Positions 158 through 22,108 of a stretch of 22,196 bases of DNA are shown here, in pieces. The position numbers and the translations under genes are program-made. The notes beneath the pieces were generated by a model, which saw only the letters and a program-made list of their open reading frames with translations, did not search any database and was not told the origin of the DNA. Numbering within the stretch: the stretch's first letter is position 1; each line of letters opens with the position of its first letter. The DNA lies in the NCBI GenBank assembly GCA_002811675.1, contig PDIM01010369.1, positions 55,395 to 77,590 on the forward strand, in the 5' to 3' direction. This DNA comes from Ichthyosporea sp. XGB-2017a. Its lineage: Eukaryota > Opisthokonta > Ichthyosporea.

Positions 158-3100
158 ATGGTGTCGTCTTCAGCGTTTGGGATTCCTCCTGCTTGCAAAG
201 AAGTCTGCCTTCAGGTATTAGACATTGAAAACTGGAGAGAAGTAGACATTAACTGTGACTCGATTACCAACAACAATAGAAATAATAATAATAATCCCGT
301 GTCCAGTCGAGGAGGAGGAGCACAGTATCACACATCCAGCATAGATAATGACATCTCCGGGGGCGGATACTCTTTCCAGCACTGCCCAACACGGGTGTTG
401 CTGCATCGGTGTGTGGGGAATACACTGGAGCTGGTGGAGTTGAGTACAGAGGTGGCTCTGGTGGAAAATGCAGTTCGATTTCGGTTCCCAGCGCGGCTTT
501 TGCCTTATTCTGGGGGTCAGTTGCGTGTGTATGAGAATGTGAGTAGCGGGGTGCCTTATGTGTGTGTGCTGGTGGCCACTGCGGTGAGTCTGCATCGATT
601 ATTGTTCCCTCATCCATTGACTTTTGAGAGGAGCAATAGTAATAATAATAATAGTTTGAATAGGGATCAGTCTAGGCAGTCTATTTTTTGTGAAAACACT
701 TTTGATTTGGCCGAGTTGCAATTGTCGTGTCATAATCATAAGATGATCACTTCTTCTGCTGCTGCTGCTGAGGGGAATAGAAGGGAAGGAGGAGGAGTGG
801 GAAGTGGTGGCGGTGATGGGGGCTCGGGGGGATTAATTCCAAATACTAATTGTCCTATTGATGATAACACGGCTGTGTTGGGGTGCCGTGACGGGAGTCT
901 TTTGATGCTTTCCCTGCCGCCTTTACAGCAGATTCATAATGATATTGTGAGTAGTTCAATGGATGAGAATGAATATGCGACTGATATGGAACTGGCTGAA
1001 GTGCGGTTATCAGTTGCTTCGATTATGAAACGATTATGGACGGGGCTGATCCCTTCTTTTGCGAGTGGGATTGTGAATAAGGATAATGGTGAGTCTGGGG
1101 TTCTGAATGTTAGTGTTCTGCCTGGTGATGAAGTGCTTGGGGGGATGTTGGTTTCAGTTGGTCGATCTGGTGATGCTCAGGGGAATCTCAATGGCTCTAC
1201 TTCCTACGCAGGGATCCTGGAATTTGAAATTGATTGTGATACTTACGTATTTTGTATCTCTGCCGATCACAAATTACGGGCATGGAATCTGACAACAAGG
1301 GAGTGTTGTATGGAGATTGATATTACACAGTACCGTGCAGACTTTGAGGAGCGGTATGGTGATAATAACGGTAACGGAAGTAAAAAGAGCAGCAGTTCTG
1401 GTAGTGCGGCAGTCACGATGGTGGACCATCGCGTGACAGTTCACGTGGAAAAGGATGACCCTTTGCGTTTTGCAGTGGTTGTTTACTTTTCGTGCGATGA
1501 TCGAAAAGAATTTTTGGTGTTTTCCGGCCGTCGTGCGCGCACAGAAGAGGACCAAGAAAATATGGCAGCCGCTATTAGTGAGCAAGGCCCATTTGCGCAT
1601 CACGGCAATGTCCCGCCGCCAAATTGGAAATTGAGTGATAAAAAGCAGCAATTCGAGCTTCATTTTCTGGGTGGGAAACAGTGCATGGACAACTATTTGA
1701 TTGATTTTTCTGTGAGTGATTCATGCCTGTGGGGTGTGTGGGCCAAAGTGGAAGGGTATGGTAAAACAATATGCTCGTACTGCCCATTGTATAGTGATGT
1801 TGGTACAGGATCCGGGATTGTGAATCAGTGGAAGCCTGTCTTTCCTGGCCAGGATGAGGATATTGATATGGTCTTTTCATTGAACGAAGACAGGGATGAT
1901 TTGCTGACGAAAGATGACGAATGGATGTTAGCCAGTCGTGACCCCCAAGAAATTGTTTTGGAGAGAATATTTCTGCCTGGGCGTTTTGCCAGTCGTGTAA
2001 TCTGCAATGCGCTTGCCTGCTATCGCAATGATTCGGTGCCAACTATGTTCTACAATCCAAAAGTATCTTTAGCTGATTTGCAAGCTGAAGTGATCGCGGC
2101 TGTGCAGTATGAGATTTATGAGGGTGCATCGGGCCAGGAAATTGATCCCGATGAATATAGAACACTTGTTATTGATGAATGGAAGAGGTTTTATGAGTGT
2201 GTATACAGATGCTATGACTTGGAGCAAGGTCACTTTTCAACATCAGGGTCGTATATTCGAAATGTGCATGGAAACTATGACGATATAAATGGTATTTGTG
2301 GGATATTTATGGATGAGAACTCTTGTTTGCCAGTTGTGGTTAAGCGAAGTGGCGTTTCTTTCTTCAGGCCGTGTGAGGAATTGGAATACCTATACCTTTC
2401 ATCCGCTGTAAAGAGTAAGAATAATAGCTCCCGCAGTAAATTTGTTAGCGCTCGTGCAGTTTCGCAATCCAAGTTAATTAGTAATGCATGTAAAAAGGAC
2501 AAGGGGGGCTCAGCAGTTGCTGGCCTTATGTCCATCAGCTCCTCCCTTGGCAGGGACATTGTTCTTTTCTTGGATTTAATTCAATATGTGGCTGATGCGA
2601 GTGGGCCACAGGAGCTGCGCAAGTTTGAAAATGATTTGTTTCACTCTGTGAGAGGCTTTCCAGCAGCAAAAAATGTTTGCGTGTCGCTTTTGGAGCCTCC
2701 AGCTGAGCCAAACTCGGTTGAAGATATGGCTGCGAATGCATCAACCCGTTCTTCGTTTGCTTTAGAATTTACAAGGCAGTACAAGCTCATTCGTGACCCG
2801 CTAAGGGTGCTGGAGGTGCTCCTACAAGCACTGGATTACCGTACCTATGCCAGTGAATCCCAAGCAAGAAATTCGGCTTCGAATGGGGGAAATAACGTAG
2901 CCTTTAGTCAAACTGTCTGCGACCTTTTATCTATGACATTTCGTCAAGTAAATGCTGTGCGCTCTCATATTTGTCGTGACATGCTGCTGGCAATATACTT
3001 GGTCATCCACTTTGGGCTTCACAGTAACGGTGATGGAGAAAATGGGGAAGAAAACATGTTCAGCTATATTGTACCGACTTTGGAGAAGTATGCGAAAGCA

Positions 3101-5452
3101 TATTTTGCTGTCAAATGGCTTTCAAGACAGCGTACGGGTGAAAATGCGCTTGCAAAAAGTGGTAGCTTACCATCACTTGCTTTCCTGCAAGGATCAATGT
3201 CATCCCTAGACATTTCAAGCAAATCCGAGAACATAAGTTCTTCATCTGAAGTGGAGGAAGATAAAACAATGAATGAAGCTTTTCTTATTGACCAATTGCC
3301 AGCTGTGGTCGCTGAATGTCATCGGCTATTTGGCCGTCGAGACGTTGGCTTGTTTGAGCAATGCTACCCCCTTTCCATTGCCATCGGTAGCTTAATGCTG
3401 AGTATGAACCATACTGCTCAAGATGAAAGTAGTATGAAGTTGAGTGAGTTCATGTTTCGTAAGGGGCAGATTGTGCAGTTGGAGCAATACATTCGGCTTT
3501 TGAATATTAAAAGTGCGGGGCTGCAATATCTTTCTGCTTTGACGTATATGAGCATCGGAGAATTTTACAAGGCCAAAGATCTTTTTCTTGTTGCAACTGC
3601 TGGTGTGCACAACAAAGAGAGATTCTTGCTTTCCCTTGTTGCGAAGGATGAAGAAAACGCTCCTAATCTTGAAAGCGAATGTAGTTCAAGTAATTTGATT
3701 TCGTATTACATGCATATTATGCGGATTTTTGAACAGCATGGCGCAGAAGAGCTATTGGTGTTTTTCGCTGAAGCTGCTTTAGTGAGCACAAATCTTCCAG
3801 AATATAAGGAAAATTTTCAAAATGTAGTTGATGACCGCGTGGCCATTTTATGGTCTAACGTCTTCAAACACACCTTGGACATGGGCCACTATGATAAAGC
3901 ATATTCTGCTATTGTGACCAATCCTGACTCCCAACGGCGCAAAGATTGTCTTAATCGGTTTGTGGTTGTTATGTGTGAGCGCAAACAACTTGAAACTCTG
4001 TGTCAACTCCCATATATTGGTATGCAACAAGAAGTGGAAAAAGCAATTTTGTGGAAGGCAAGAACTACTGATGTCGAAATGATGATTGCTGAAGATTCTG
4101 TAGTAAATTACTACAACTTTTTGTACTCTTTCCATGTGCATCGTGGCAACTACCGAAAAGCAAGCACTGTAATGTTTGAGTTTGGCCAGCGCCTTTCTTT
4201 GGAAAGTCGTTGTCATTTGATAAGCTTACAGGCTCAGGCAAAGTGTTACTTGGCATCCATCAATACGCTGAGTTTAGTATCAGTCGAAAATGCTTGGGTA
4301 ATGATTCCTTGTGTATCCCTCAAACAACGGAAAGAGGATGTTTTAGAGAACCCTGGCATGTCCCCAAAGCGAAAGTATGATGATGACAACGAGGATGGGG
4401 GCGGCTCAAACATGATGGGGGTATCATTTGGGCAGGGAATTGGCGGTACCTCGTTAACTCAATCACCGAAATCCAATTTCAAAATTTACACAGTTGAAGA
4501 CATTCGTAATTTGTATCATTTGGCTCTTGCAGAACTGCGACTTGTGCAAAAGGAAAAGCTCCCAGCGGTAAATCAGTCTTCCTTGACAGCTAATGAAGTT
4601 TTGTCTCTCTTGGTGCAGAGTGGTCTGTATGAGAGTGCGTTTTCTATTTGCTCCAAATTTAAAATTGATTGTGATGGAGTGTTTGAGGCCATTACTTCAA
4701 AATGTTGCCAATTGTCGCAAATTGAAGTATATCCGGGTAGCGAAGATGACGTACTGATGGCCGATTTGGACTTGGAATGGATCAGAGAGGCGGTCAAAGA
4801 AAATGAAACAAACATCACCACAGCCAATGGGGGGCACGAATCAGCGGACCATGATGCAGAAGCATTTATTTCGTACAGCTTATATTCGAAATTCTGCTCG
4901 GGTATGTCTTTTAGCGAGGCCAAAAATATTTCTTGGAAAGTTCTGTATATGTATTTGCGTAAATTCGATAGCAGAAATGTAAATTATAAATACCACAAAG
5001 TTGTTGTTGGTAAAATGCTGTCATGCAATCCTGAACTACGTATCCCCGTGTTCATTGTGCGCTCGTTTGCTAAAGTCAATCCAGGGGAGCTTTTGCGTTT
5101 ATACGCTCGCCATGGACTGTTTCAAGAAGGGGCAGAATTCCTTTTGGCGATGCTTAATGCTGTTGAAGGGAATGTAATCGAAGGCCATGGGAAGGCTGAA
5201 GATTTTGGGTTCTTTAATACACTTCGGCCAACCGATGCCTCTGTACTGCTTCCTTATTCGGCTATTAATGAGTACTTGAGCTACCTCCGTCCATACCTAC
5301 GGGAAAATAGACACGAAAACCGTATGAGCGACTCCGGGGAAGAAGAAGATGCGATGAGCGTACTAGAAAGCACGGAAACTCGCATCAATGAGTACTTTGA
5401 GCGGGTAAAGAGTACTTCTGAAGCAATGAAAGTGCTTCAATCAGCGTCCTGA
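158..5452 (+). CDS. NUP160: NUP160-like nucleoporin (Nup120/160, Y-complex)
   Basis: This encodes a 1764-aa protein like animal NUP160, a scaffold subunit of the Y (Nup107-160) complex at the nuclear pore, needed for pore assembly and mRNA export. The N-terminal third (about 1-500) should form the beta-propeller; it includes RLWTGLIPSF near 295 and HKLRAWNL near 371, which match the propeller part of the family. The rest is an alpha-helical stack, with a strongly conserved block at about 1317 (NYYNFLYSFHVHRGNYRKAS) and another near 1641 (NPGELLRLYARHGLF). Human NUP160 has about 1436 residues; the extra length comes from Asn-, Ser- and Gly-rich insertions, for example the Gly-rich run near 200-225. 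No intron interrupts the 5.3 kb. The start is the first in-frame ATG; upstream codons are low complexity. Family assignment rests on recalled human sequence similarity. Confidence 0.9.
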   Translation: MVSSSAFGIPPACKEVCLQVLDIENWREVDINCDSITNNNRNNNNNPVSSRGGGAQYHTSSIDNDISGGGYSFQHCPTRVLLHRCVGNTLELVELSTEVALVENAVRFRFPARLLPYSGGQLRVYENVSSGVPYVCVLVATAVSLHRLLFPHPLTFERSNSNNNNSLNRDQSRQSIFCENTFDLAELQLSCHNHKMITSSAAAAEGNRREGGGVGSGGGDGGSGGLIPNTNCPIDDNTAVLGCRDGSLLMLSLPPLQQIHNDIVSSSMDENEYATDMELAEVRLSVASIMKRLWTGLIPSFASGIVNKDNGESGVLNVSVLPGDEVLGGMLVSVGRSGDAQGNLNGSTSYAGILEFEIDCDTYVFCISADHKLRAWNLTTRECCMEIDITQYRADFEERYGDNNGNGSKKSSSSGSAAVTMVDHRVTVHVEKDDPLRFAVVVYFSCDDRKEFLVFSGRRARTEEDQENMAAAISEQGPFAHHGNVPPPNWKLSDKKQQFELHFLGGKQCMDNYLIDFSVSDSCLWGVWAKVEGYGKTICSYCPLYSDVGTGSGIVNQWKPVFPGQDEDIDMVFSLNEDRDDLLTKDDEWMLASRDPQEIVLERIFLPGRFASRVICNALACYRNDSVPTMFYNPKVSLADLQAEVIAAVQYEIYEGASGQEIDPDEYRTLVIDEWKRFYECVYRCYDLEQGHFSTSGSYIRNVHGNYDDINGICGIFMDENSCLPVVVKRSGVSFFRPCEELEYLYLSSAVKSKNNSSRSKFVSARAVSQSKLISNACKKDKGGSAVAGLMSISSSLGRDIVLFLDLIQYVADASGPQELRKFENDLFHSVRGFPAAKNVCVSLLEPPAEPNSVEDMAANASTRSSFALEFTRQYKLIRDPLRVLEVLLQALDYRTYASESQARNSASNGGNNVAFSQTVCDLLSMTFRQVNAVRSHICRDMLLAIYLVIHFGLHSNGDGENGEENMFSYIVPTLEKYAKAYFAVKWLSRQRTGENALAKSGSLPSLAFLQGSMSSLDISSKSENISSSSEVEEDKTMNEAFLIDQLPAVVAECHRLFGRRDVGLFEQCYPLSIAIGSLMLSMNHTAQDESSMKLSEFMFRKGQIVQLEQYIRLLNIKSAGLQYLSALTYMSIGEFYKAKDLFLVATAGVHNKERFLLSLVAKDEENAPNLESECSSSNLISYYMHIMRIFEQHGAEELLVFFAEAALVSTNLPEYKENFQNVVDDRVAILWSNVFKHTLDMGHYDKAYSAIVTNPDSQRRKDCLNRFVVVMCERKQLETLCQLPYIGMQQEVEKAILWKARTTDVEMMIAEDSVVNYYNFLYSFHVHRGNYRKASTVMFEFGQRLSLESRCHLISLQAQAKCYLASINTLSLVSVENAWVMIPCVSLKQRKEDVLENPGMSPKRKYDDDNEDGGGSNMMGVSFGQGIGGTSLTQSPKSNFKIYTVEDIRNLYHLALAELRLVQKEKLPAVNQSSLTANEVLSLLVQSGLYESAFSICSKFKIDCDGVFEAITSKCCQLSQIEVYPGSEDDVLMADLDLEWIREAVKENETNITTANGGHESADHDAEAFISYSLYSKFCSGMSFSEAKNISWKVLYMYLRKFDSRNVNYKYHKVVVGKMLSCNPELRIPVFIVRSFAKVNPGELLRLYARHGLFQEGAEFLLAMLNAVEGNVIEGHGKAEDFGFFNTLRPTDASVLLPYSAINEYLSYLRPYLRENRHENRMSDSGEEEDAMSVLESTETRINEYFERVKSTSEAMKVLQSAS

Positions 5453-5747: not shown

Positions 5748-6854
5748 ATGTCTGCAGGCTGGAATAAGATTGCGGGAAAGAATATTCCTTCGGGTGAAGG
5801 GGAAATCAAGAAAGGGTGTAGGAGGGGGTTTGAACCGGATGCGTCACAGAAAGGAAACAAAGGGGGGGAAGATGGGCGAAGGGGAGAGAAGCAGTTGAGA
5901 GGTGTTGTTGATGGAGGTGAAAAAGATGAAAGTTGTGAGTCTGATTTGTTTATTATGGTGACTAATAAGAGTGCTCGACGAAAACAACAGCACTCACACT
6001 TAAATGACAACAAAGGTAACAGTAATCAAAGTCAAAATCATTCACGGCCTCCTTCTTCTCAACACAATGGAAGTAACAAATTAGGGAATCATTCGAACGA
6101 TCAAAAACAGTGGCAAAAGCAGCATCAATCTCAGAGACGAAATGGATCACAAAAACAAGATCAAAAACGTCAAAAAGGGGAGGATTCTCGGCAAGCGGGT
6201 GGGCAAAAGGCGGGAGCGCATGCTGTTTTCAATGAGGGTCACAGACTCGCAGCTTGGCCTTCATTGTTGGAGGAGGAGAAGAAGGGAAAGGAATCAAACA
6301 ACTCATCGAAACTGACCGAAGGCATTGGGCAGCCTGCTCGAGATCAGAACCAGAAACAAGCCCAGGGAAGGAAGCAATCGGCGACGAAGAAGAAGCAAAA
6401 TAGTGAAAAGGGAAATCAGATTGAAGTGAGTCTGGGAGATTTTCTTCATTTCCCACCTTCAGCTTCAGAGCAGCAGCAGCCTAAGCGAAAGCAAAAACAA
6501 ACGCAAAAGGGACCGAACGTTACTGCCACTGGTGGCAATGGTGGAAGAGGCCTTGGTAGTGGTGGTGTGAATGGCACTGCTGGGACATTGGCAGGCGCTG
6601 ATAGTTCTGGTTCCGGAAGAGGGAGAAGTGTGAGGGGGAGTGGAAGACCTGATAAGAAGGTGAAAAATGTAAATATTCTTGATTCAAGTGCGCCTGTAAC
6701 GCGCCATGGGAAGGAGAGGGAGACGCCAAAGGTGAAAAAGCCAACTCAATTGAAAAAGATCATTCTCCGGGAAAAGGAGGAAAGGCGACTGAAGCGCAGG
6801 GAGGAGGAGCGAGGGGATGGGGAAGTGGGTGAGGAAAACGGAGAGGAGGAAGAG

Positions 6855-6901
<47 letters not shown>

Positions 6902-7586
6902 AGAAGAAAAGGAAGAAGAAGAAGAAAAGGAAATGGGCAAAGAAGATGAAGGAATGGGAGAAGAACAAACACAGAAGCTAAAAGAGGACGAGGAAGAAGA
7001 AGCCATCGAGGAGGATAGTGCTGAGGTAAAAGAATTGTGCAAGCAACTGAAAGCAAGTGACTTATCATCTGTGCATAGTGTTCGGTTTCGGGAATATTGC
7101 AACCAATTAATCACCAAAGAATTCAATGATCGTGTGGCCAGACTCATAAAGACCCTGTGGGGCTTTCATGTGAGAAAACTAAAAATTGACCCTGTTGCAG
7201 CAGCGCGGCGTCGTCGAATGATATTTGGGCTGCGGGAGGTATTAAAAGGAGTGAAGAAAACTGCAGGGTCCGTCACCACTGTGGGCTCCCAGAGCTCGAG
7301 AATCCGCTGTGTAATTCTCAGTCCAGATGTTCAAAAGAGTGAAAGTGAGGGTGGACTGGATTCCCATGTTCAGGGCATCTTAACGTACTGTAAGGAAGCG
7401 GATATCCCCGTGGTGTATGCTTTGAGCAAGCGAAAGATCGGAAGACTGATTAAAAAGCCTGTCTTGCTTAGTGGTTTAGCTATTCTCAATTACAGCGGGG
7501 CGGAGGAGATATACAAGGATATGCTGAGACAAATGCTGAAACTAAGAGCTGACTACAACGACAAGATATCATCTTTGCCTGTTTGA
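5748..7586 (+). CDS. SECISBP2: SECIS-binding protein 2 (SBP2)-like selenocysteine incorporation factor
   Basis: This encodes 612 aa (543 if the in-frame ATG at 5955 is used). SBP2 binds the SECIS hairpin in selenoprotein mRNAs and recruits the selenocysteine elongation factor so that UGA is read as Sec. Residues about 438-612 match the SBP2 RNA-binding region: HSVRFREYCNQL, a RRRMIFGLREVLK block with the L7Ae signature G494-L-R-E-V-x-K500, RCVILSPD, GGLD, IPVVYAL and NYSGAEE. Residues 309-348 match the Sec-incorporation domain (NILDSSAPV..GKERE..KKPTQLKKIILRE). LGDF, upstream of that, resembles another SBP2 motif. The N-terminal half is basic, Gln/Asn/Lys-rich and probably disordered; a long Glu tract separates the two conserved domains. 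An insertion of about 13 residues (505-517) sits in the L7Ae fold. The paired SID and L7Ae motifs argue against a generic L7Ae or ribosomal protein. The first 69 residues are low complexity, so the start is uncertain. Confidence 0.88.
6840..6933 (+). repeat. GAA/GAG purine-only tract encoding poly-Glu in SBP2
   Basis: There are 94 consecutive purines, mostly GAA with some GAG and GGAA, with no pyrimidine on the plus strand. They encode the Glu run between the SID-like motif and the L7Ae domain. GAA/GAG mixing shows an imperfect microsatellite, likely to vary in length between strains and capable of triplex (H-DNA) formation. Confidence 0.85.
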
Positions 7587-8071: not shown

Positions 8072-8428
8072 ATGAAGTTTTTTAATAATACCGCTGTGAT
8101 GATGATGATACTCATACTTGCATGTATCATGATTCTCTCATCCGGAACAAAAGCAGCCCCAGCCACCTCCACGAAGGTGATCCAGTCTTCCTCCTTGATG
8201 CCATGCTACCCATGCGGAGGACTGTGCAAGAACTGCTTCAGTGAGGAAGAGTACACAGCCCTGTCTACACAGGAAAAATCCCTTGCTTACCAATCCGCTG
8301 TCAGTCAATTAGCCTTTGGCAATAACACCTCCACCCATTCCGCTCAGTTGGAGAAAGCAGCCCAGGAACAGAAAGAACTTGGCTGCTGCCTTTGCGACGG
8401 CCACCATTCGTGTTTTCAGTGCTGTTAA
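8072..8428 (+). CDS. Small secreted cysteine-rich protein, unknown family
   Basis: This encodes 118 aa and I do not recognise the family. Residues 1-28 look like a signal peptide: Lys2, a hydrophobic core of Met/Ile/Leu at 10-22, and a likely cut after T-K-A28. The mature part (about 90 aa) has ten cysteines, enough for five disulfides, in two clusters: C-x2-C-x3-C-x2-C near the N-terminus (PCYPCGGLCKNC) and CC-x-C-x5-C-x2-CC at the extreme C-terminus. The middle is Ser/Gln/Ala-rich, probably helical, with overlapping N-glycosylation sequons at NNTS. The paired Cx2C spacings could alternatively bind metal. It could be an effector-like, antimicrobial, adhesion or structural peptide; nothing decides between these. 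It has its own TATA-type promoter and an AATAAA signal at 8515-8520, so expression is likely. There is no intron. Confidence 0.75.
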   Translation: MKFFNNTAVMMMILILACIMILSSGTKAAPATSTKVIQSSSLMPCYPCGGLCKNCFSEEEYTALSTQEKSLAYQSAVSQLAFGNNTSTHSAQLEKAAQEQKELGCCLCDGHHSCFQCC

Positions 8429-8856: not shown

Positions 8857-10662
8857 ATGTCTTCTTCGCGTCTTTTGACCGCAACGTCTGGCCTCTTGAG
8901 AGGAAGCGGTAATACTCTGTTTAATAGTCATAAAAGGGTAAGATTATAATCTGCTTTTGTGTGTGTGTGTGCTTTATTTTTCTTTGTCTTTGTTTATTGT
9001 GATCTGTGTGGGTGTTGTTGAGAAAGGGATTCATCAAGATTCAAAGAGAAGGAGATGAATTGCGAGCGATGGGAAGCTTCTTTTGGTGATTTGGTGTTTG
9101 GTTGTTGATGAAGGGAGAGGGATTATTAGCGGATGTGTAGAGGAGGAAAGGCGACTATGTGTGTGTAGTTTTTGAAAGGGTTTGGGAGAAAGGAAACGAC
9201 GATTTCAACTCTTTTTTGTTTTTTTTTTCTTTGGTTAAGTAAGAATATGCTTTGCTAATCTGATTACCTTTTCTTTGTTTTTATTTTTTGTTCTCATGTT
9301 GTCTATGATGTTGTTTGGGAATCATGTTGGGTTGCCTTTTCTTTTTGTTTTATATATTTCTTCTTAAAATCGTTAAATCAAACAATACAGGCCATGCCTG
9401 TTGTGAATGCTATGCAGGTCCGTAACCTGTCCGTCCACGAGTATTTGAGTATGGATCTTTTGAAGAAATACAACATTGATACTCCCCGCGGGCGTGTAGC
9501 AAAGACTGTGAAAGAGGCAGAAGAAGTTGCCAATGAACTCAACACTGAGGATTTGGTTATTAAAGCACAGGTTCTTGCTGGAGGTCGTGGTAAGGGAACA
9601 TTCGGTAATGGTTTGAAAGGAGGTGTGCGAACAGTTTTTTCACCTGCCGAAGCCGCCATGTATGCTGAGCAGATGTTGGGCCAAAAGTTGGTGACTAAGC
9701 AGACTGGTGCAGGAGGAAGAATCTGTAACGCTGTATACATTGTAGAGAGGTTGTATGCACGAAGAGAATACTACTTTGCTATTCTTATGGATAGAGCGAC
9801 ACAGGGCCCATGCCTTGTGGCGAGTAGTCAAGGAGGGGTTGATATTGAATCCGTTGCTGCTTCCAACCCTGAAGCTATCATTACATCTCCTGTTGATATG
9901 AAGACTGGTTTGCAGATGGCCCAGGCCAAGGAAGTCGCCGAGAAGATGGGATTCACTCCTGGATGCGTTGATGATGCCGCCAAGAACATGATCAACTTGT
10001 ACAACCTTTTTATGGAGAAGGACTGCACTCTTGTGGAAATCAACCCCATGGCCGAGGATGCCCATGGAAAGGTCATTTGCATGGATGCCAAGATCAACTT
10101 TGACGACAACGCCGAGTTTCGTCAGAAGGACGCTTTTGCGCTTCGCGACATCACCCAGGAGGATGAGAGAGAAGTTGCGGCCTCCAAATTTAACTTGAAC
10201 TACATCGGATTGGACGGAAGCATTGGATGCTTGGTCAACGGAGCTGGTTTGGCTATGGCCACTATGGATATCATCAAGTTGCATGGTGGTGAGCCCGCTA
10301 ACTTTTTGGATGTCGGTGGTGGAGCCACTGCTGCCCAAGTTGCCGAGGCGTTTAAAATCATCAGCTCAGACAACAAGGTATCTGCTATTTTGGTCAACAT
10401 TTTCGGAGGTATTATGCGATGTGATGTTATTGCTCAGGGTATCATTGCCGCTGCAAGTCAGTTGGACTTGAGAATTCCCCTTGTTGTGAGATTGCAGGGA
10501 ACCGAAGTTGAGGCCGCTAAAAAGCTCATCGAAGACAGTGGAATGCGCATTATCTCTGAAGACGATTTGGATGCTGCTGCCAAGAAGGCATCTCAGATGG
10601 CTGAGATTGTTAAAATGGCCAGGGAAGCAGCCATCGATGTGAAATTCGAACTTCCTTTGTAA
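8857..10662 (+). CDS. SUCLA2: Succinyl-CoA ligase [ADP-forming] beta subunit, mitochondrial; join(8857..8937,9391..10662)
   Basis: This encodes 450 aa. The enzyme joins succinyl-CoA hydrolysis to ATP formation in the TCA cycle, as a heterodimer with the alpha subunit in the mitochondrial matrix. Exon 1 encodes a typical presequence ([18 protein letters not shown]...), rich in Arg/Ser/Leu without acidic residues. Exon 2 begins [18 protein letters not shown], the conserved mature start. Clear motifs are [14 protein letters not shown] of the ATP-grasp domain, [26 protein letters not shown] and [17 protein letters not shown] of the CoA-ligase domain. [17 protein letters not shown] resembles the ADP-forming SUCLA2 form rather than the GDP-forming SUCLG2. 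The join is phase 0 with AG/GTAAGA and ACAG/GCC borders. An ATG stands one codon after the acceptor (9394), so a transcript starting in the intron could give a form without the presequence. Confidence 0.96.
8938..9390 (+). other. Intron 1 of SUCLA2 (453 nt)
   Basis: The donor is GTAAGA at 8938 and the acceptor ends ACAG at 9390; the intron is phase 0 after codon 27. It is much longer than the only other intron in the window (78 nt). It carries a second copy of the 12-bp palindrome three bases after its start (8941-8952), a (GT)n run near 8957-8970, a G-rich middle (about 9010-9190) and a TAATC-N-GATTA dyad at 9256-9266. No ORF continues through it. Confidence 0.9.
8941..8952. promoter_or_regulatory. 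12-bp perfect palindrome, copy 2 (SUCLA2 intron 1)
   Basis: AGATTATAATCT is identical to the promoter copy at 8740-8751, exactly 201 bp further on. It begins inside the donor site (GTA-AGA), so a bound protein or RNA pairing could touch splicing. Inference only. Confidence 0.4.
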
Positions 10663-10966: not shown

Positions 10967-12751
10967 TCACTGGTGCACAACATGAAGGGCGGCAGTAAAC
11001 TTGTCACCAAAGAAGGGGAAATATGATTCACCGCACACTCGCTTGCACACTTTAGCTGGTATACCCATGTCTAACACTATGAGCTGGCCCTGTCCAGCAT
11101 TCGAGTCGGCATTGTAATCTTGAGGAAGGCCCAAGCCAACTGTGCATTTACTTTCAACGCTTGAAGTTCCACTAAATGATGGGAAATCTATTGAGAGTTT
11201 CGGAGCAATGTCATTATTTGCCCAATCTATGAGTTGCGATACATCTACATCCGCGTTTGCGGTATCTACAAACCCTCGTTCGGAAGTGCCGAGTGCATCT
11301 ATAATCAGATCTACTGGTGCATCAATGCGTGTACGAGGCAGCTCTTCGACCTTGCAACTTGATACCAAGGTACCATCCGTACACAAAAATAGTTTCGTCA
11401 GGGCTAAGCTTCTTTCAGATAAGCTGGAGGATGCCGTTGTGTTAAATAAAATGACTTTTGTGTTATGACTTGCAAAGTGACGAGCCGCGACCATACCAAT
11501 ATTACCCATAAAACTGTCCGAGCATAATACCACAATCACCGGGAGCTGATGAAGATTCTTGGCATTAATTCTTCGAGAGCCACCCAAGAGATGAAGGCCC
11601 AGTTCGCACACACTACGACCTCCATTCTCAGCCATAATCTCTTTAGTAATCTGTATTTTCTCACAAATTGTAAACAGATTCGCTCGTTGCTTGCTTGACA
11701 GATACGGCACGACCACATCGTTATCCGTTTTAAGAACAGGTTTCGAACTAGAATTGGATGGCGATGGGGAAACGGCACCGGGCACAAGCAAAACAGGCTT
11801 TGGCCCATCGTGTTCTTCAGAGTCGAGCACATTCTCATAATATTCAAAATTCTGTGGTTTCTTATTGATATGGACCAACCTCTCCTCTGGTCGAGTTTTT
11901 TCATTCTCTTGAATTTCCGCAAACACCTGTGCTTTATCGAATCTTTTCAAGTTACCCTCAAAGTCAAAATCATCAAGAACACTTTCAGATAATGTATGCC
12001 CAAATGCATCCTGATCCCGTTGTGATTTGTACTTTTCCTTCTTCCCGTTCCTTTGTTGCTGCCTACTAACATTCAAATTGGGGCTTTGTACAGTGTAATT
12101 ATGCGGCTCCACAGTGCGACATTGGTACAATCCAAAATCAATGTCTTCATCATCGACAAATTGATTCCCACCATTGTTACCGTTATTGTTTTTCCCGCCA
12201 CGACCACCACGATCTTTATCTTTCCGCCTGGACGAGCGCGAGGATCTTTCAGGGGCCTGCGGAGATCCCATCATAAGCCCATCTGGAGCAGGAAGAGGTG
12301 GGGGAGGGGGATTAGTCATATTGGACGAAGATAAAATGGCGTGATTGTTCTGCAAAACATGCGGAGGGTGCTGCATTTTCGGGACGGGAGAGGAGAAGTG
12401 AGGCGCGGGTGGGGGTGGGGGATTATTATTACTTAAATTACTATTACCCGTATTTCCTTTCAAGCGGGAAGCATAATTCATCTGTGCCGAGTTCACTCTG
12501 TCCGGTTGAGGCATTGCACCTGCACTAGCAGAACCTGGACGAGACACCAACTGCAGATCCAGAATATCCACCCCTTTGACTGATAACTCTGCAGCAAAGA
12601 CACTTTTCGGGCCCGGGGAGAGGGGATCCAGGATGGGTTCTGCAAGGACAATGCTCTGTGTGCTCGTGTCCACCCGTGAAACCACTCCCTGGTAGCACGT
12701 GCCTGACTTGAGCTTGACAAGGATAGTGCAGTTGATGAACGCGTCCGTCAT
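10967..12751 (-). CDS. EDC3: EDC3, enhancer of mRNA-decapping protein 3
   Basis: This encodes 594 aa with the full EDC3 domain order. EDC3 activates the DCP2/DCP1 decapping enzyme and scaffolds P-bodies in the cytoplasm. Residues 1-70 form the divergent LSm domain (FINCTILVKLKSGTCYQGVV). An FDF motif follows at about 260-280 (DDFDFEGNLKRFDKAQVF), the binding site for the DHH1/DDX6 helicase. The C-terminal YjeF_N Rossmann-like dimerisation domain runs from about 350 to 594 (RSVCELGLHLLGGS, then PVIVVLCSDSFMGNIGMVAARH, and near the end GIPAKVC...FFGDKFTAALH). The linkers are Asn/Ser/basic; two poly-Pro stretches lie at about 107-117 and 146-156. No intron. The start is the ATG that opens the LSm domain. 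The gene is followed head-on by SUCLA2. Confidence 0.93.
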   Translation of the reverse strand: MTDAFINCTILVKLKSGTCYQGVVSRVDTSTQSIVLAEPILDPLSPGPKSVFAAELSVKGVDILDLQLVSRPGSASAGAMPQPDRVNSAQMNYASRLKGNTGNSNLSNNNPPPPPAPHFSSPVPKMQHPPHVLQNNHAILSSSNMTNPPPPPLPAPDGLMMGSPQAPERSSRSSRRKDKDRGGRGGKNNNGNNGGNQFVDDEDIDFGLYQCRTVEPHNYTVQSPNLNVSRQQQRNGKKEKYKSQRDQDAFGHTLSESVLDDFDFEGNLKRFDKAQVFAEIQENEKTRPEERLVHINKKPQNFEYYENVLDSEEHDGPKPVLLVPGAVSPSPSNSSSKPVLKTDNDVVVPYLSSKQRANLFTICEKIQITKEIMAENGGRSVCELGLHLLGGSRRINAKNLHQLPVIVVLCSDSFMGNIGMVAARHFASHNTKVILFNTTASSSLSERSLALTKLFLCTDGTLVSSCKVEELPRTRIDAPVDLIIDALGTSERGFVDTANADVDVSQLIDWANNDIAPKLSIDFPSFSGTSSVESKCTVGLGLPQDYNADSNAGQGQLIVLDMGIPAKVCKRVCGESYFPFFGDKFTAALHVVHQ

Positions 12752-13119: not shown

Positions 13120-14721
13120 CTACACCGCTACAGACGCAGATGAGGAGGATGAGGGCCCAGTCAGTCTCCCCGGTAGTGCTTTCGCCATCGCCACCAGTGC
13201 AGATTTAGCTTCACTCTCGGGGAAGATTTCCAGACACAAAATAGCCTCCTCGCAATATCCCTCCACAAGCTCCTTTGTCTTTCGCATCCCGTACTCACTA
13301 TTGGGGGCGAGTACGTCACGCTCCAGCCGCTCCAGGTCCGCCACTCCCTCCTGCACGGCCTCCACAGAGGTGCCTTGCCCCAGAGCAAAGATGGTGGGCA
13401 CATTGATGGCGGTTTTGCTTCTCTCCCCTACATGGGCGACAAGTCCATGATTAGCATGCACCGCATCCTCCACAATCTGATACGCCATCCCCATTGCCCG
13501 TCCAAACCGCCCAGACACCTCTACAACAGCGGGATCAATGCTCCCGCTGGATAGGCTCGCCACCGAGGCGCAGCTGTTCCCAAGAAGACTTCCTGTTTTC
13601 AGTTGCACCATCCGCAGATAGCTCTCAAGGGAATAATCATCTGAATTTAGTCTCATCGACTCCCCCTCCACCACATCAGCCACCGCACTGGACATCATTT
13701 CCACCACTTTGGTGTTTTTCAGGCATGCCAGAGCCACACACGCCTTGGCGAGAAGAAAATCACCGCCCAACACTGCGACTTTGTTTCCAAACAAAATATC
13801 AGGCGATGTTGTGGTCGGGGAATCAGCCATATGGCCCTTTTCTACAACTCTTCGCACCTTTTCGTCATCGATCTGGCCAACAATGGGCGATACATTGACC
13901 ACATCATCGTGAATCAAACTCGCCGAGTGAATCATTTCTGCAATCTCAGACAGCGCCAGTTGGGAAGGGGCAATATCGGTGGAGGAAACACTTCCAGCAA
14001 ACTGCAAATTAGAATCTGTTGTCGCTTCTGTCTCCTTATTTCGGTTATTACCAACATCACCATTGTTGCTTCTGAGATTATTGCTGGCGTTGATTGGACT
14101 GATGGCACGGGCCATGATAAGCACCACAAGTCCACGAAAATGCCATCCATGATTGTGGCTGATATAATCCGACATTGTATCCAAAATGGGGTGGCCCGAG
14201 TTCATCAACTTCTTTGCGTACTTTGCCAGAGAGGAAAACTCCTCCCCCATCAATTGCTTGATCGATAAGAGATTCGTAGAATATCCAGCGACACTTTCCG
14301 CGTTGGAAATGGCCGCCGTCCAAGCCCGCTCGCCCTTGAGATCAAACAGCTCGCTACTGTTCATGCAGTCCAGCCGCGTGAATCCCTCCCTGTCACTTTT
14401 CTTGGCATTAGAGCCGCCCCCAAGCAAAGGATCCTTCCGCATCTTCATCATCATAAAGACTGGGACGCGGGTTTTGATTTTTTCCCATGATTGGGACAGG
14501 AGGGAGTTGATGAATGAAAAAGTCCCGTATGGTCTGGTGAAGAGGGAAGAAGAAAAAGAAGAAGTGGAAGAAGAAGAGGAGGAGGAGATAAGAAGAGAGA
14601 GGGATTTGCAGTTATTTCGAGGCTGAGTGTTATTACAATAAACTAAAGAAGAGGAGCGGCAGAAGAGCGATTCAGGGATGCGAGAAGTACTTTGCCAAAG
14701 TCGTTGTTGTAGGTGCTTCAT
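13120..14721 (-). CDS. PDSS2: PDSS2-type subunit of polyprenyl diphosphate synthase (ubiquinone side chain)
   Basis: This encodes 533 aa. PDSS2/Dlp1 pairs with the catalytic PDSS1 subunit in mitochondria to make the long isoprenoid tail of ubiquinone. The first ~75 residues are Arg/Ser-rich, presequence-like. AESVAGYSTNLLSIKQL, HPILDTM, FRGLVVLIMARA and FGNKVAVLGGDFLLAKACVAL follow the PDSS2 pattern rather than PDSS1. Catalytic motifs are eroded: the first Asp-rich motif reads HDDVVN (271-276, last Asp replaced by Asn) and the second reads YQIVEDAVH (414-422, only one Asp left). K375-T376 of the KTG motif is kept, and HDD is kept where human PDSS2 has lost it. It is longer than human PDSS2 (about 400 aa) because of the leader and Ser/Asn-rich insertions. 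No intron. Transcription diverges from the homeodomain gene. Confidence 0.87.
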   Translation of the reverse strand: MKHLQQRLWQSTSRIPESLFCRSSSLVYCNNTQPRNNCKSLSLLISSSSSSSTSSFSSSLFTRPYGTFSFINSLLSQSWEKIKTRVPVFMMMKMRKDPLLGGGSNAKKSDREGFTRLDCMNSSELFDLKGERAWTAAISNAESVAGYSTNLLSIKQLMGEEFSSLAKYAKKLMNSGHPILDTMSDYISHNHGWHFRGLVVLIMARAISPINASNNLRSNNGDVGNNRNKETEATTDSNLQFAGSVSSTDIAPSQLALSEIAEMIHSASLIHDDVVNVSPIVGQIDDEKVRRVVEKGHMADSPTTTSPDILFGNKVAVLGGDFLLAKACVALACLKNTKVVEMMSSAVADVVEGESMRLNSDDYSLESYLRMVQLKTGSLLGNSCASVASLSSGSIDPAVVEVSGRFGRAMGMAYQIVEDAVHANHGLVAHVGERSKTAINVPTIFALGQGTSVEAVQEGVADLERLERDVLAPNSEYGMRKTKELVEGYCEEAILCLEIFPESEAKSALVAMAKALPGRLTGPSSSSSASVAV

Positions 14722-15179: not shown

Positions 15180-18100
15180 ATGGACAATCAGCCTCGATCA
15201 CCCTTTGTAGCTAATCCTCATGGCAACACAGGCAGCTACTCGTACCAGCACCACAACAATAACAGTCACAGTAGCAATGGCAGCGTGAACATGATTGGTA
15301 ATAATAATAATAGAAACAGTAGCTACAACAGTCATCCCCAGTATAGTCAACAATCGTCTTCTTTATCTGATAGTCCTGTTGGTATGTCTAGCGGCCATCA
15401 TAATCTCCCGTCCACTATTCCTCCTCACGCCTCGTCGAGTCAGCGCCACTTTATGCAACAAGATCCGCACTTACAAAGGCGTCCTTATAACAGCAATAGC
15501 AATAGCCGCCCGAGCAGTTATTCAACTAGTGTTCATCCCCCTCTCGGACACATTGGCATGAATCTCGCTTCCAGTAGTGGCGGCGGGGAGGGAAGTACTC
15601 ATCTATATAGTCACAGTAATGTGTTTATGAATACGAAAAGTAATGGCAATCCAGCATCTTTTACAAAGGACTTTGTGTATTCTGCCCCGGGTATGATTAT
15701 ATCCTCGGGTGATAGTAGTTCTCTCCCAGTTGCCCCTTCTTCCTCTTCTCCCTTGCTTTCTTCTGGCGGTTCAGCGAATCCTATTCTACCTTCTTCTTCC
15801 ACACCTCCCACCCGCACCTCTTTTCCCCACTCGCACAGTAATTACAGTGGTAATATTGATAAACCTCTCGACAATATTGACTCACAGAAATTGTACTCTC
15901 GCTCAGATCCGTCCCAACACGAGGCGCGACAGCAATTTGCGAGCTTCAGTGGCGCGTGTAGTGGCAGTAGTAGTTCTGGTCATCATGGTACAGGTGCTGT
16001 GATGACGAGACAGACGGGAACTGCGAGTACATCTGGTTACTATAATGATGGCAGTGCGTCTGGGTATACCAGTACTCTTAGTGGTGTTGGTCGTAGGATG
16101 AGTGATAGTCCTTCAGGTGTCAATTCACTGGCTTCAAGATCGGGATCACTGGCTTCAAGATCGGGATCACTGGGTTCTGTTCAACCTGGGGATTGTTGGA
16201 TGGATCAATCGTACAGTGCTACAACGTGTGCATACAATCCAGTCACAATATCAACAGCCAACGCATCATCTTGCCCCCCTGCGGAATACGGCTACGGGAA
16301 TAGTGCCAGTGGTGGACTTAATAAGGCTAATAGTAGTGCTAGCGGGGCTGGAGCTTATGGAAATACGCATGGGATTGGTAATTATAACTTAAATAGTGGA
16401 GGGCAACCGCAGCAGCACTTGATTCGCGATGCAGGATTGATACAAGGGAACGAAATTAGCTATTCCACCAAACAAAACAAGCATTATACCCCCGCTTCAG
16501 TTTCTCAGTCTACAGTTCCTGCTGCTGATACTGCTACTTCTATTGCTGCTCCAACGCCTGCGACAGATCCCTCCAAGTGTAAATATAGCAAGAATAATAT
16601 AAGTAGCAATTCTGGAAGCAGTAGCAAAGGCAATAATGTAGCGGTATATGCACAGTCTGAGAAAGTTGGTGAGAAACAAGACTTGGGAAGGGAAGAAGTC
16701 ACGAAAAAAGCAGACTCAGATTATAGTAGAGTGATCAAAAAGAAACGCTCAAAGCAGTTGGTAAAAGTTGGGAAAGTGAGTTCTTCCAGTGCTCGGAGTG
16801 GAAACAGCAAGAAAAAAACGAACAAAGGCGAAAGTGAAAAAGAAAAGGATAAAGTAAAAGACAAAATCGAAAAGGAAGGAGCTCAGTCTGCTACAGGTAG
16901 TGTAAATATTAGTGCTACTTCTAAGGGGAAAGGGAAAGAAGTGCCTCGTCCTCCCACTCCTCCGGGTGTCAGTCACTTGCGACAAGGGAATGATTTGTCA
17001 AATAGCCTTAGTGGTGTGGTGGATTGTGCTGTCACTCACAAGAACATGGATGGTGCTGCCGAGGCTGCTGGTGACGGAAATGCTGAAGACAAAGTGGACG
17101 GTAGCGAAAAAAGCACGGAAAAGAAAAGTACAGAGAAAGTTGGGAAGAAGCGTGAAAGGAAAAGTGGAAAGAAAAATGAAAAGAAATTAAAAACGGGTGA
17201 CGAAGTCGGATATAAAAAAAAAGATTACCTTGAGCTGCTAAAGATGAGAGGGAAATCTAAGCCGAAATCATATCCAGGTAGACCAACTCCCAAGTCTCCG
17301 CCAGTGGAGCAAGAAGAGTTGGATGACACCGTAGCTTCAAAGACATCTATAGAAGTAGGACCGGAAAAGGACGCAGGGGCGGAAGAAACCCCTAGTCCAG
17401 AAAAAGAAGAATCATCGGAGAACATCGAGGCAAAATTGAAAGAATCGGGGAAGTGTGTAGAACGCCAGAACACTAAAGCGCGCCCTGTTACCAAGCTCTC
17501 GAGTGAAATGCAGGATTGGTTAGACAAATGGTTGCAAACCCGTCTGGACTTGCCATATCTCACTGTCGAAGAAGAGGATCTCTTAACTGGAATTATGGGA
17601 CTTTCAAGAACAAAAGTTATTGCACAGATTGGTAAAGCAAAGGGGAGAATAAGCACAGCATTGACTTTGCGAGTGTATGATGCCTTGCGTCAGAAACGTT
17701 CAATTATTAATAAGAAGAAGAATTTTCAAAATTGGTCTCTAGCATATGACAATGTAGATACAAAAGAAAGGCCCAAAAGCTCAAAGAAAAAAAGTGTTCG
17801 ATTTGTTGAGGGTGATTTGTGGCAAGGGCCGGAAGAAAGTGAAGTGAATAGCAGTATTTACAATAGTATGGAAAGTGTTGGGACTGATGATGAAGATCCC
17901 GAAGATTCGGGCCCGGTCGCAAAGAAGCGAAAAGATAATCCCAGTGATGATGATGTCCAGTCGGGTGAAGAACATGTAGATGATGAAAGGGAAGAGGAGG
18001 ATGAGAGGGAAGGGGAGGATGAGCGGGAAGGGAAGGTAGAAGGTGAAAAGGAAAAAGGAAAGGGACCAAGACGCCAACACTTAACGCTGAATTTAGTAAA

Positions 18101-18329
18101 GGATATGAAGGCATGGCTTCGGGAAAACATTAATTGCCCAATTCCGCAGAGGTCCGTAAAGGAGCGTTTTGCGAAGAAATACTCTGTAGAGCTGAAGCAG
18201 GTTCATTCCTGGTTCAACAACGTTCGATATAACAGGTTCTCTTCTAAGAAAGTAAACGGAAAGACTGTGTATCAACTGCAGCCGCGTCAGGAAGCATGGT
18301 TAGGTGTCCATGGTGGTAAGGACAAGTAG
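15180..18329 (+). CDS. Large transcription factor with two TALE-like homeodomains (first degenerate)
   Basis: This encodes 1049 aa. Residues 1-500 are Ser/Asn/Gly/His-rich and probably disordered; 500-760 are Lys/Glu-rich with NLS-like basic runs (KKKRSK, GKKRERKSGKK). A C-terminal homeodomain spans about 967-1030, with recognition helix KQVHSWFNNVRYNR: W1011, F1012, N1014 and R1016 occupy homeodomain positions 48, 49, 51 and 53. A second unit at 773-835 has the same length from its PYLT motif to the end of helix 3 (GLSRTKVIAQIGKAKGRI), but W48, F49 and N51 are replaced by Q, I and K. PIP and PYL sit where TALE proteins have PYP. An acidic linker with EREGEDEREG repeats separates the two. The product should be nuclear and DNA-binding. 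I cannot assign an orthologue. No intron. Confidence 0.8.
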   Translation: MDNQPRSPFVANPHGNTGSYSYQHHNNNSHSSNGSVNMIGNNNNRNSSYNSHPQYSQQSSSLSDSPVGMSSGHHNLPSTIPPHASSSQRHFMQQDPHLQRRPYNSNSNSRPSSYSTSVHPPLGHIGMNLASSSGGGEGSTHLYSHSNVFMNTKSNGNPASFTKDFVYSAPGMIISSGDSSSLPVAPSSSSPLLSSGGSANPILPSSSTPPTRTSFPHSHSNYSGNIDKPLDNIDSQKLYSRSDPSQHEARQQFASFSGACSGSSSSGHHGTGAVMTRQTGTASTSGYYNDGSASGYTSTLSGVGRRMSDSPSGVNSLASRSGSLASRSGSLGSVQPGDCWMDQSYSATTCAYNPVTISTANASSCPPAEYGYGNSASGGLNKANSSASGAGAYGNTHGIGNYNLNSGGQPQQHLIRDAGLIQGNEISYSTKQNKHYTPASVSQSTVPAADTATSIAAPTPATDPSKCKYSKNNISSNSGSSSKGNNVAVYAQSEKVGEKQDLGREEVTKKADSDYSRVIKKKRSKQLVKVGKVSSSSARSGNSKKKTNKGESEKEKDKVKDKIEKEGAQSATGSVNISATSKGKGKEVPRPPTPPGVSHLRQGNDLSNSLSGVVDCAVTHKNMDGAAEAAGDGNAEDKVDGSEKSTEKKSTEKVGKKRERKSGKKNEKKLKTGDEVGYKKKDYLELLKMRGKSKPKSYPGRPTPKSPPVEQEELDDTVASKTSIEVGPEKDAGAEETPSPEKEESSENIEAKLKESGKCVERQNTKARPVTKLSSEMQDWLDKWLQTRLDLPYLTVEEEDLLTGIMGLSRTKVIAQIGKAKGRISTALTLRVYDALRQKRSIINKKKNFQNWSLAYDNVDTKERPKSSKKKSVRFVEGDLWQGPEESEVNSSIYNSMESVGTDDEDPEDSGPVAKKRKDNPSDDDVQSGEEHVDDEREEEDEREGEDEREGKVEGEKEKGKGPRRQHLTLNLVKDMKAWLRENINCPIPQRSVKERFAKKYSVELKQVHSWFNNVRYNRFSSKKVNGKTVYQLQPRQEAWLGVHGGKDK
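16128..16169 (+). repeat. Tandem 21-bp direct repeat in the homeodomain gene
   Basis: Two adjacent identical 21-bp units (16128-16148 and 16149-16169, starting ctggcttcaag) encode two in-frame copies of LASRSGS, followed by a decayed third (LGS). This is a recent slippage duplication in the disordered region. Confidence 0.85.
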
Positions 18330-18521: not shown

Positions 18522-18878
18522 GCTTTATGGAGAGCATCAGACAAAGCACATGCAAAAAGTAACCCTTCCAACTTTGGGGCATAAACCAAACGGAACCCTA
18601 ATTTAACGACCTTTTGTTTTTGTTCCTTTGGAATGTGTTGTTTTGAGTTTTTGTGAAACTCTGGTCACAATTTTTATTGTTAATTGTTGTTGGCCTTTTT
18701 TTACCTTTTTGTTTCTGATTCTTGTTATTGTGATTTAAAGCTTTAAAAGGGGATTTCTTGTGTTTGTTATTTGGTTGGTTAAATTTGTTTTTGTTTTTTT
18801 GTTGTTTGTGTGCCAAATATTTGTTGCAGTGTTTTTGTTTCAAAGAAAAAGTTGTTCTGTTGGAAGAAATCATTCATT

Positions 18879-21310: not shown

Positions 21311-22108
21311 TTACTTACAGGCCGCATAACGAGCAGCAACATCCTTCCAGTTGACCACCTGCCAGATGGCCTTGAGATAATCCGGCCTGACGTTCTTATA
21401 ATCCAAATAATAAGCATGTTCCCATACATCCACACCCAGGAGAGGCACAAGACCAGTGGTCGCCTCCAAGGGGTCCTGATTAGGCATGGCAATGATCCTC
21501 AAAGTCTTATAGACCTTATCATAACACAACCAGCCCCATCCACTGCCTTGCACCGCCGCAGTCTGTGCATTGAAATTGGTGATAAAGGCATCCAGGGAAC
21601 CAAAAGTCGCCTCAATGTCCTTGAGAAGTTGTCCCTCGGGTGGGGTGTAGTCCTTAACCGGGCAGAGATTCTGCCAAAAGATGGAGTGATTGATATGTCC
21701 ACCCCCGTTAAAGCGCAGAGCGGGCTGTAACGCAATCACTTTTTGTTGATCATTGTTGTGCACCGCCTCGCTGAGTTGATCCATCGCAATATTAAAGTTG
21801 TTCACATACGTTTGGTGATGTTTAGAGTGATGCAGAGTCATAATCTCGCTACTAATCACCTAACAAAAAAAAAAAAACATAAATCAATACACAAATCAAT
21901 AAACATCAGCGCCAAACTGGTTTTGTTTGTTACTTACAGGCTCCAAGGCATTGTAATCATACGGAAGATCAGGCAAAGTGTGTTTTAATCTCCTCCCGGC
22001 GGCTAATCCGAGTCCTGCAGACGCGGATTGTGTCAGGGAACGAGTTGCAGACGAAAGAGAAGCAACACTACGAGATTTCAAAATGCTTGACAACATGATT
22101 TTGTACAT
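21311..22108 (-). CDS. SOD2: Mitochondrial Mn superoxide dismutase; complement(join(21311..21859,21938..22108))
   Basis: This encodes 239 aa. The enzyme converts superoxide to hydrogen peroxide and oxygen in the mitochondrial matrix. Residues 1-41 form an Arg/Ser/Ala-rich presequence; the mature enzyme starts near [16 protein letters not shown]. Metal ligands are H67 (LHHSKHH), H115 (HINHSIFW), D201 and H205 (DVWEHAYY). GGGHINHS together with Q185 in PNQDPL is the Mn-type signature. The exons join in phase 0 (CCT/GTG). V58, the first exon-2 residue, replaces the His usual in the family at LEPHI. Two in-frame ATGs at 22108 and 22096 could both start translation; the first adds only MYKI. Upstream of 22108 the frame opens without an ATG. 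Its 3' end faces UPP. Confidence 0.96.
21860..21937 (-). other. Intron of SOD2 (78 nt)
   Basis: On the minus strand the donor is GTAAGT (21937-21932) and the acceptor follows a T-rich tract, ending GTTAG at 21860. It is phase 0 after codon 57. CTGAT- or TTGAT-like branch candidates lie inside. Joining the exons restores LEPVISSEIM across the expected conserved region. Confidence 0.93.

What the first reader, a model, noticed from the sequence alone, without database searches (positions are those of the whole stretch)
5748..7586. A full SBP2 selenocysteine factor in a compact, fungus-like gene landscape
Seen: both the Sec-incorporation motif (NILDSS..KKPTQLKKIIL) and the SBP2 form of the L7Ae domain (GLREVLK, GGLD, NYSGAEE). 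Known: SBP2 has no established role outside Sec insertion and is lost in lineages without selenoproteins; most fungi have lost Sec, with survival reported only in a few early-branching groups. Inferred: this genome still makes selenoproteins. If it is a fungus, it adds to a short list and its gene models for UGA-containing proteins are probably truncated.
Basis: partly seen in the sequence, partly recalled or inferred. Interest (0 to 1): 0.8.

Follow-up and report, generated by a model that had tools for sequence, protein, structure and literature searches.

The report
Selenocysteine factor SBP2 in ichthyosporean
The window carries a real gene for SBP2, the protein that lets cells read the stop codon UGA as the selenium amino acid selenocysteine, and it most likely comes from a single-celled relative of animals rather than a fungus, so it is a useful but ordinary new record of selenium use.

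Summary

The genome (25.06 Mb, 291 contigs) also has SEPSECS and a SEPHS2-type gene with UGA at the active-site codon (LKG-UGA-GCKVPQ). A form-2 SECIS-like hairpin lies 277 nt past that gene's stop: 9 of 1000 shuffles score as high, as does 1 distinct site in 492 kb of other strand scanned. Sec use is well supported, not proved.

The source is not a fungus. Its EF2 is 88% identical to EukProt 'Sdes' (read as Sphaerothecum destruens) and sister to it at 100/99, i.e. probably a dermocystid ichthyosporean.

Against: EEFSEC, PSTK and tRNA-Sec were not found, Rfam's SECIS model misses the hairpin, and the one GPX is a Cys form. The misses weigh little: the same search tool found 4 of 14 expected proteasome genes. 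Verdict: new member of a known kind, modest interest.

The parts
5748..7586 (+). SBP2 gene, single open reading frame of 612 aa
6675..6767 (+). Sec incorporation domain motif, ILDSSAP to KKPTQLKKIIL (aa 310-340); 26 of 42 identities to human SBP2 over the surrounding block
6789..7058 (+). Glu-rich linker (aa 348-437, 47 of 90 Glu), not conserved
7086..7100 (+). FREYC, counterpart of the FRDY motif (human 629-632) before the RNA-binding domain
7200..7508 (+). L7Ae RNA-binding domain (aa 485-587) with GLREVLK, GGLD and NYSGAEE

Best explanation
The gene is a SECIS-binding protein (SBP2) of a unicellular holozoan, most likely a dermocystid ichthyosporean, that still uses Sec. Its L7Ae domain binds the kink-turn core of SECIS hairpins in the 3'UTRs of selenoprotein mRNAs, and its SID links that hairpin to eEFSec and Sec-tRNA at the ribosome, so that chosen UGA codons are read as Sec. 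One client is visible: the SEPHS2-type selenophosphate synthetase, itself UGA-coded, which would feed Sec synthesis together with SEPSECS. Shown by sequence or model: SBP2 identity, the in-frame UGA in conserved coding context, a SECIS-like hairpin after it, SEPSECS, the placement by EF2. Inferred: RNA binding, recoding, and the presence of eEFSec, PSTK and tRNA-Sec, which were not found.
For: SBP2. SEPHS with UGA opposite the SEPHS1 Thr, E 9.4e-119. SECIS-like hairpin 277 nt after the SEPHS stop: 9 of 1000 shuffles of the first 1000 nt reach its score, 1 distinct site at that score in 491,998 strand-bases of other loci and window, some overlapping, fold z -2.21. SEPSECS: six matches to PF05889 on one contig, best 135 bits. 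Holozoan source.
Against: EEFSEC not found: PF21208 gives 0 candidates, human EEFSEC hits only four other translation GTPases. PSTK: one weak match (20.5 bits), a different kinase. tRNA-Sec: none over the cut-off, and no good cloverleaf among the pattern hits checked. Rfam SECIS_1 misses the hairpin, the hairpin with flanks folds at z -1.25 only, and its lower helix is weak. The only GPX is a Cys form. Human Arg731 is Lys here.
Confidence: 0.85

Rival explanations
1. Sec decoding has been lost or is being lost: SBP2, SEPSECS and a UGA-bearing SEPHS are left in a genome without EEFSEC, PSTK and tRNA-Sec, and the SEPHS UGA is read through without Sec, as proposed for hymenopteran SPS1-UGA.
For: EEFSEC, PSTK and tRNA-Sec not found; GPX is a Cys form.
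Against: The same tool found only 4 of 14 expected proteasome genes and 2 of at least 5 expected universal L7Ae proteins. SPS1-UGA genes lack SECIS and carry GGG-UG[C/U] after the UGA (PMC4561486 section 10); this gene has GGTTGC and a SECIS-like hairpin. The SBP2 SID and RNA-binding domain are well kept.
Confidence: 0.08
2. The protein has the SBP2 form but another job, as a general kink-turn or ribosome-binding L7Ae protein.
For: N-terminal half unlike the SBP2s aligned; Arg731 of human SBP2 (a SECIS contact as recalled) is Lys.
Against: The SID, for which I recall no use outside Sec insertion, keeps 26 of 42 identities; the best structural match is SBP2 itself by a wide margin; a UGA-coded SEPHS with a SECIS-like hairpin is in the genome.
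Confidence: 0.04
3. The source is an early-branching fungus.
For: Compact genes, and nine Sec-using fungi are known (PMC10386755, passage).
Against: EF2 sister to a dermocystid entry at 100/99; EF1A outside a 9-row fungal clade at 100/99, but as a long branch. No fungal protein among the 120 SBP2 hits shown.
Confidence: 0.03

Closest known systems
Vertebrate SBP2 / SBP2-like (SECISBP2, SECISBP2L)
   Same: SID motif and L7Ae-type RNA-binding domain in the same order; 33-38% identity over the aligned C-terminal part for the 29 proteins aligned; same fold by model.
   Different: Much shorter or different N-terminus, a Glu-rich linker, a short insert after GLREVLK, Lys in place of human Arg731.
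SEPHS2-type (Sec) selenophosphate synthetase, SPS2
   Same: UGA at the active-site codon in LKG-UGA-GCKVPQ and a SECIS-like hairpin in the 3'UTR. SPS2 tracks Sec use in the eukaryotes surveyed in PMC4561486 (section 5).
   Different: SECIS-like only by my scan; not recognised by Rfam SECIS_1.
Putative tRNA-Sec of Capsaspora owczarzaki (PMC6188563, passages)
   Same: Evidence of Sec in a unicellular holozoan.
   Different: There the tRNA was found; in the passages seen, no protein factor is named and two choanoflagellates lacked the tRNA. Here protein parts were found and the tRNA was not.
Hymenopteran SPS1-UGA (PMC4561486, section 10)
   Same: In-frame UGA at the same SPS codon.
   Different: No SECIS and a conserved GGG-UG[C/U] there; SECIS-like hairpin and GGTTGC here.

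Membership tests
SBP2 (SECIS-binding protein 2) | Sec incorporation domain upstream of the RNA-binding domain | tested here: met
   DSSAP..KKPTQLKKIIL, 26 of 42 identities to human SBP2; invariant columns with 29 SBP2 proteins
SBP2 (SECIS-binding protein 2) | L7Ae RNA-binding domain of the SBP2 type | tested here: met
SBP2 (SECIS-binding protein 2) | SECIS-contact residues Gly676, Glu679, Arg731 (numbering and role recalled) | tested here: inconclusive
   Gly and Glu kept in GLREVLK; Arg731 is Lys
SBP2 (SECIS-binding protein 2) | Binds SECIS and supports Sec insertion | not testable with these tools
   needs binding and read-through assays
Sec-decoding eukaryote | UGA-coded selenoprotein gene | tested here: met
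   SEPHS with UGA at the active-site codon; one gene only
[quoted passage not shown]
   form-2-like hairpin, 9 of 1000 shuffles, 1 other distinct site in 491,998 strand-bases; Rfam SECIS_1 negative
Sec-decoding eukaryote | SEPSECS | tested here: met
   PF05889, six matches on one contig, all over the cut-off
Sec-decoding eukaryote | EEFSEC | tested here: inconclusive
   not found, but recovery of universal genes is low
Sec-decoding eukaryote | PSTK | tested here: inconclusive
   one weak match, another kinase; recovery low
Sec-decoding eukaryote | tRNA-Sec | tested here: inconclusive
   none over the cut-off (53 of 1013 candidates scored); patterns negative, 20 of 84 hits unchecked
Ichthyosporea, Dermocystida | groups with a known dermocystid | tested here: met
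   EF2 88% to, and 100/99 with, EukProt 'Sdes'; that 'Sdes' is Sphaerothecum destruens is inferred from the label
Fungi | groups with fungi | tested here: not met
   EF1A outside a 100/99 clade of 9 fungal rows; caution: long branch, and no fungal EF2 was in the EF2 tree

The most novel reading that the evidence does not exclude
The genome is caught part-way through loss of Sec decoding: SBP2, SEPSECS and a UGA-coded SEPHS2 with its SECIS remain, while EEFSEC, PSTK and tRNA-Sec are truly gone, so SBP2 and the UGA must now work in some other way.
Probability: 0.06. Interest if true: 0.75.

Novelty: new member of a known kind. Interest (0 to 1): 0.35.

Why it matters
It puts parts of the Sec machinery and a UGA-coded client in Ichthyosporea. 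I saw no report of that in the held library (search listings only: 15 of 3,443 papers listed, 1 paper, listing only, 12 of 146 listed). With the putative tRNA-Sec of Capsaspora (PMC6188563), it helps trace Sec down the line that led to animals. Practically, gene models of this genome that end at an internal UGA, SEPHS first, would be cut short.

Tried and rejected
Rfam SECIS_1 over the genome: nothing at E<=1; on the SEPHS 3'UTR: not among the matches at E<=10. Rfam on the window: 0 matches. Rfam tRNA-Sec: 7 matches, none over the cut-off; ARAGORN on 6 of the 7 loci tRNA-Ser and 1 tRNA-Leu at the match. tRNA-Sec patterns: 12 hits against 14 in the reversed control, 84 against 74. All 12 and 64 of the 84 were tested for stems; the other 20 were not fetched, most because their anticodon-to-T-arm distance was too long. 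One weak candidate came out (score 14, no GG in the D-loop stretch) against 18 for a human tRNA-Sec control, and I reject it. A hit on contig C291 stood near a tRNA-Lys, and ARAGORN called no tRNA-Sec there. The PSTK match L067 is an AAA_18/AAA_33 kinase. The Mariotti 2019 paper on fungi is not held; I saw only a review's passage on it.

Full report
What is there. The ORF at 5748-7586 (+) encodes 612 aa without interruption. Pfam gives one domain, L7Ae, at aa 485-587. The PDB search gives SECIS binding protein 2 as its only hit at E<=0.001, E 4.7e-40, over aa 307-605, so the match covers the Sec incorporation domain as well as the RNA-binding domain. Counted without gaps, identity to human SBP2 is 26 of 42 in the SID block, 30 of 62 just before and into the RNA-binding domain, and 30 of 89 in its later part. 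In an alignment with 29 of the 266 protein hits, many SID lysines and most of GLREVLK are invariant. Gly676 and Glu679 of human SBP2 are kept and Arg731 is Lys; that these contact SECIS is recalled.

Genome-wide checks. The window lies on contig C207 of an unnamed assembly of 25,058,552 bases in 291 contigs. SEPSECS is present in six pieces on C23. A SEPHS gene on C25 reads LKFTQLKG-UGA-GCKVPQ in one frame. With Cys put in for the UGA and one intron skipped, it matches selenide, water dikinase 1 at E 9.4e-119, the UGA lying opposite Thr. The intron has GTAAGT and CAG ends.

SECIS. My scanner found one good candidate in the 1,266 nt held after the SEPHS stop, 277 nt downstream: AUGA, nine pairs around one U-U mismatch, an unpaired CAAA on the 5' side, a CUUC/GAAG mini-stem, then GGAG. 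That is a form-2 layout (forms as in PMC2746813, passages). Nine of 1000 dinucleotide shuffles of the first 1000 nt score as high. The same score occurs at 1 distinct site in 491,998 strand-bases of the other loci and the window, some of which overlap. Fold z is -2.21 alone and -1.25 with flanks. Rfam SECIS_1 does not see it, so I call it SECIS-like. The SPS1-UGA genes of Hymenoptera, read through without Sec, lack SECIS and carry GGG-UG[C/U] after the UGA (PMC4561486 section 10); this gene has GGTTGC.

What was not found. EEFSEC; by inspection of their ORFs the four hits are mitochondrial EF-Tu, eIF2-gamma, EF1A and EF2. PSTK. tRNA-Sec. To judge these misses I ran PF00227: nine matches fall at four places (C23, C41, C161, C268), against 14 proteasome subunits expected in a eukaryote (the number is recalled). 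PF01248 gave three matches, SBP2 and two others, against at least five universal members besides SBP2 (recalled). So the assembly or the first-look filter loses more than half of these universal genes, and three misses are weak evidence of absence. I cannot tell which of the two is to blame; 1.3% of the locus and window bases counted read N. The human EEFSEC query did pick up distant paralogues, so an intact EEFSEC in long exons would probably have shown.

Other selenoprotein families. The one GPX found is a Cys form. A SELENOU-like ORF seen by chance is also a Cys form (the family is recalled). No other family was searched, so SEPHS is the single UGA gene known here.

Source. EF2 from C20 is 88% identical to a EukProt entry labelled 'Sdes' and at most 81% to the other 119 hits shown. 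The tree of 20 chosen rows joins the two at 100/99. I read 'Sdes' as Sphaerothecum destruens, a dermocystid ichthyosporean (inference). EF1A (18 chosen rows) lies outside a 9-row fungal clade at 100/99, but as a long branch whose place the tool calls unsure.

Known context. SPS2 (Sec or Cys form) goes with selenoproteins throughout the eukaryotes surveyed in PMC4561486, and fungi had neither in that survey (sections 5 and 10 read). Nine fungi using Sec, seven of them Harpellales, are mentioned in PMC10386755 (passage). Capsaspora has a putative tRNA-Sec (PMC6188563, passages). Chromosphaera perkinsii groups with S. destruens in Dermocystida (PMC5560861, passages). I saw no report of Sec in Ichthyosporea (listings).

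Verdict. Observation confirmed; Sec use well supported but not proved; not a fungus; ordinary in kind and useful as a record.

Noticed in passing
L064 (G000:C176): EF1A is an unusually long branch (1.19) with a Lys/Asp-rich C-terminal tail.
   Followed up: partly
L005 (G000:C196), 1222-2960: Seven tRNA-Ser genes in tandem (anticodons aga and tga), mostly 279 bases apart.
   Followed up: no
L063 (G000:C12), 112 onward: ORF that looks like the SELENOU/PRXL2 family (recalled) in its Cys form, RRFGCALCR.
   Followed up: no
L019 (G000:C193): The single GPX found has Cys at the active site, KCGFTKQ.
   Followed up: partly
G000:C291 (68,996 bases): Several tRNA genes close together (Thr, Val, Ala, Ser, Tyr, Met, Lys); perhaps the mitochondrial contig, not checked for genes.
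   Followed up: no
window 8072-8428 (+): 118-aa Cys-rich ORF with a signal-peptide-like start and no Pfam match.
   Followed up: no
window, flanking genes: Neighbours by Pfam: Nup160-type nucleoporin (158-5452 +), CoA-ligase with ATP-grasp (9394-10662 +), FDF/YjeF_N protein (10967-12751 -), polyprenyl synthetase (13120-14721 -), KN homeobox (15180-18329 +), PNP/UDP phosphorylase (18810-21005 +), Fe/Mn superoxide dismutase (21311-21859 -).
   Followed up: no
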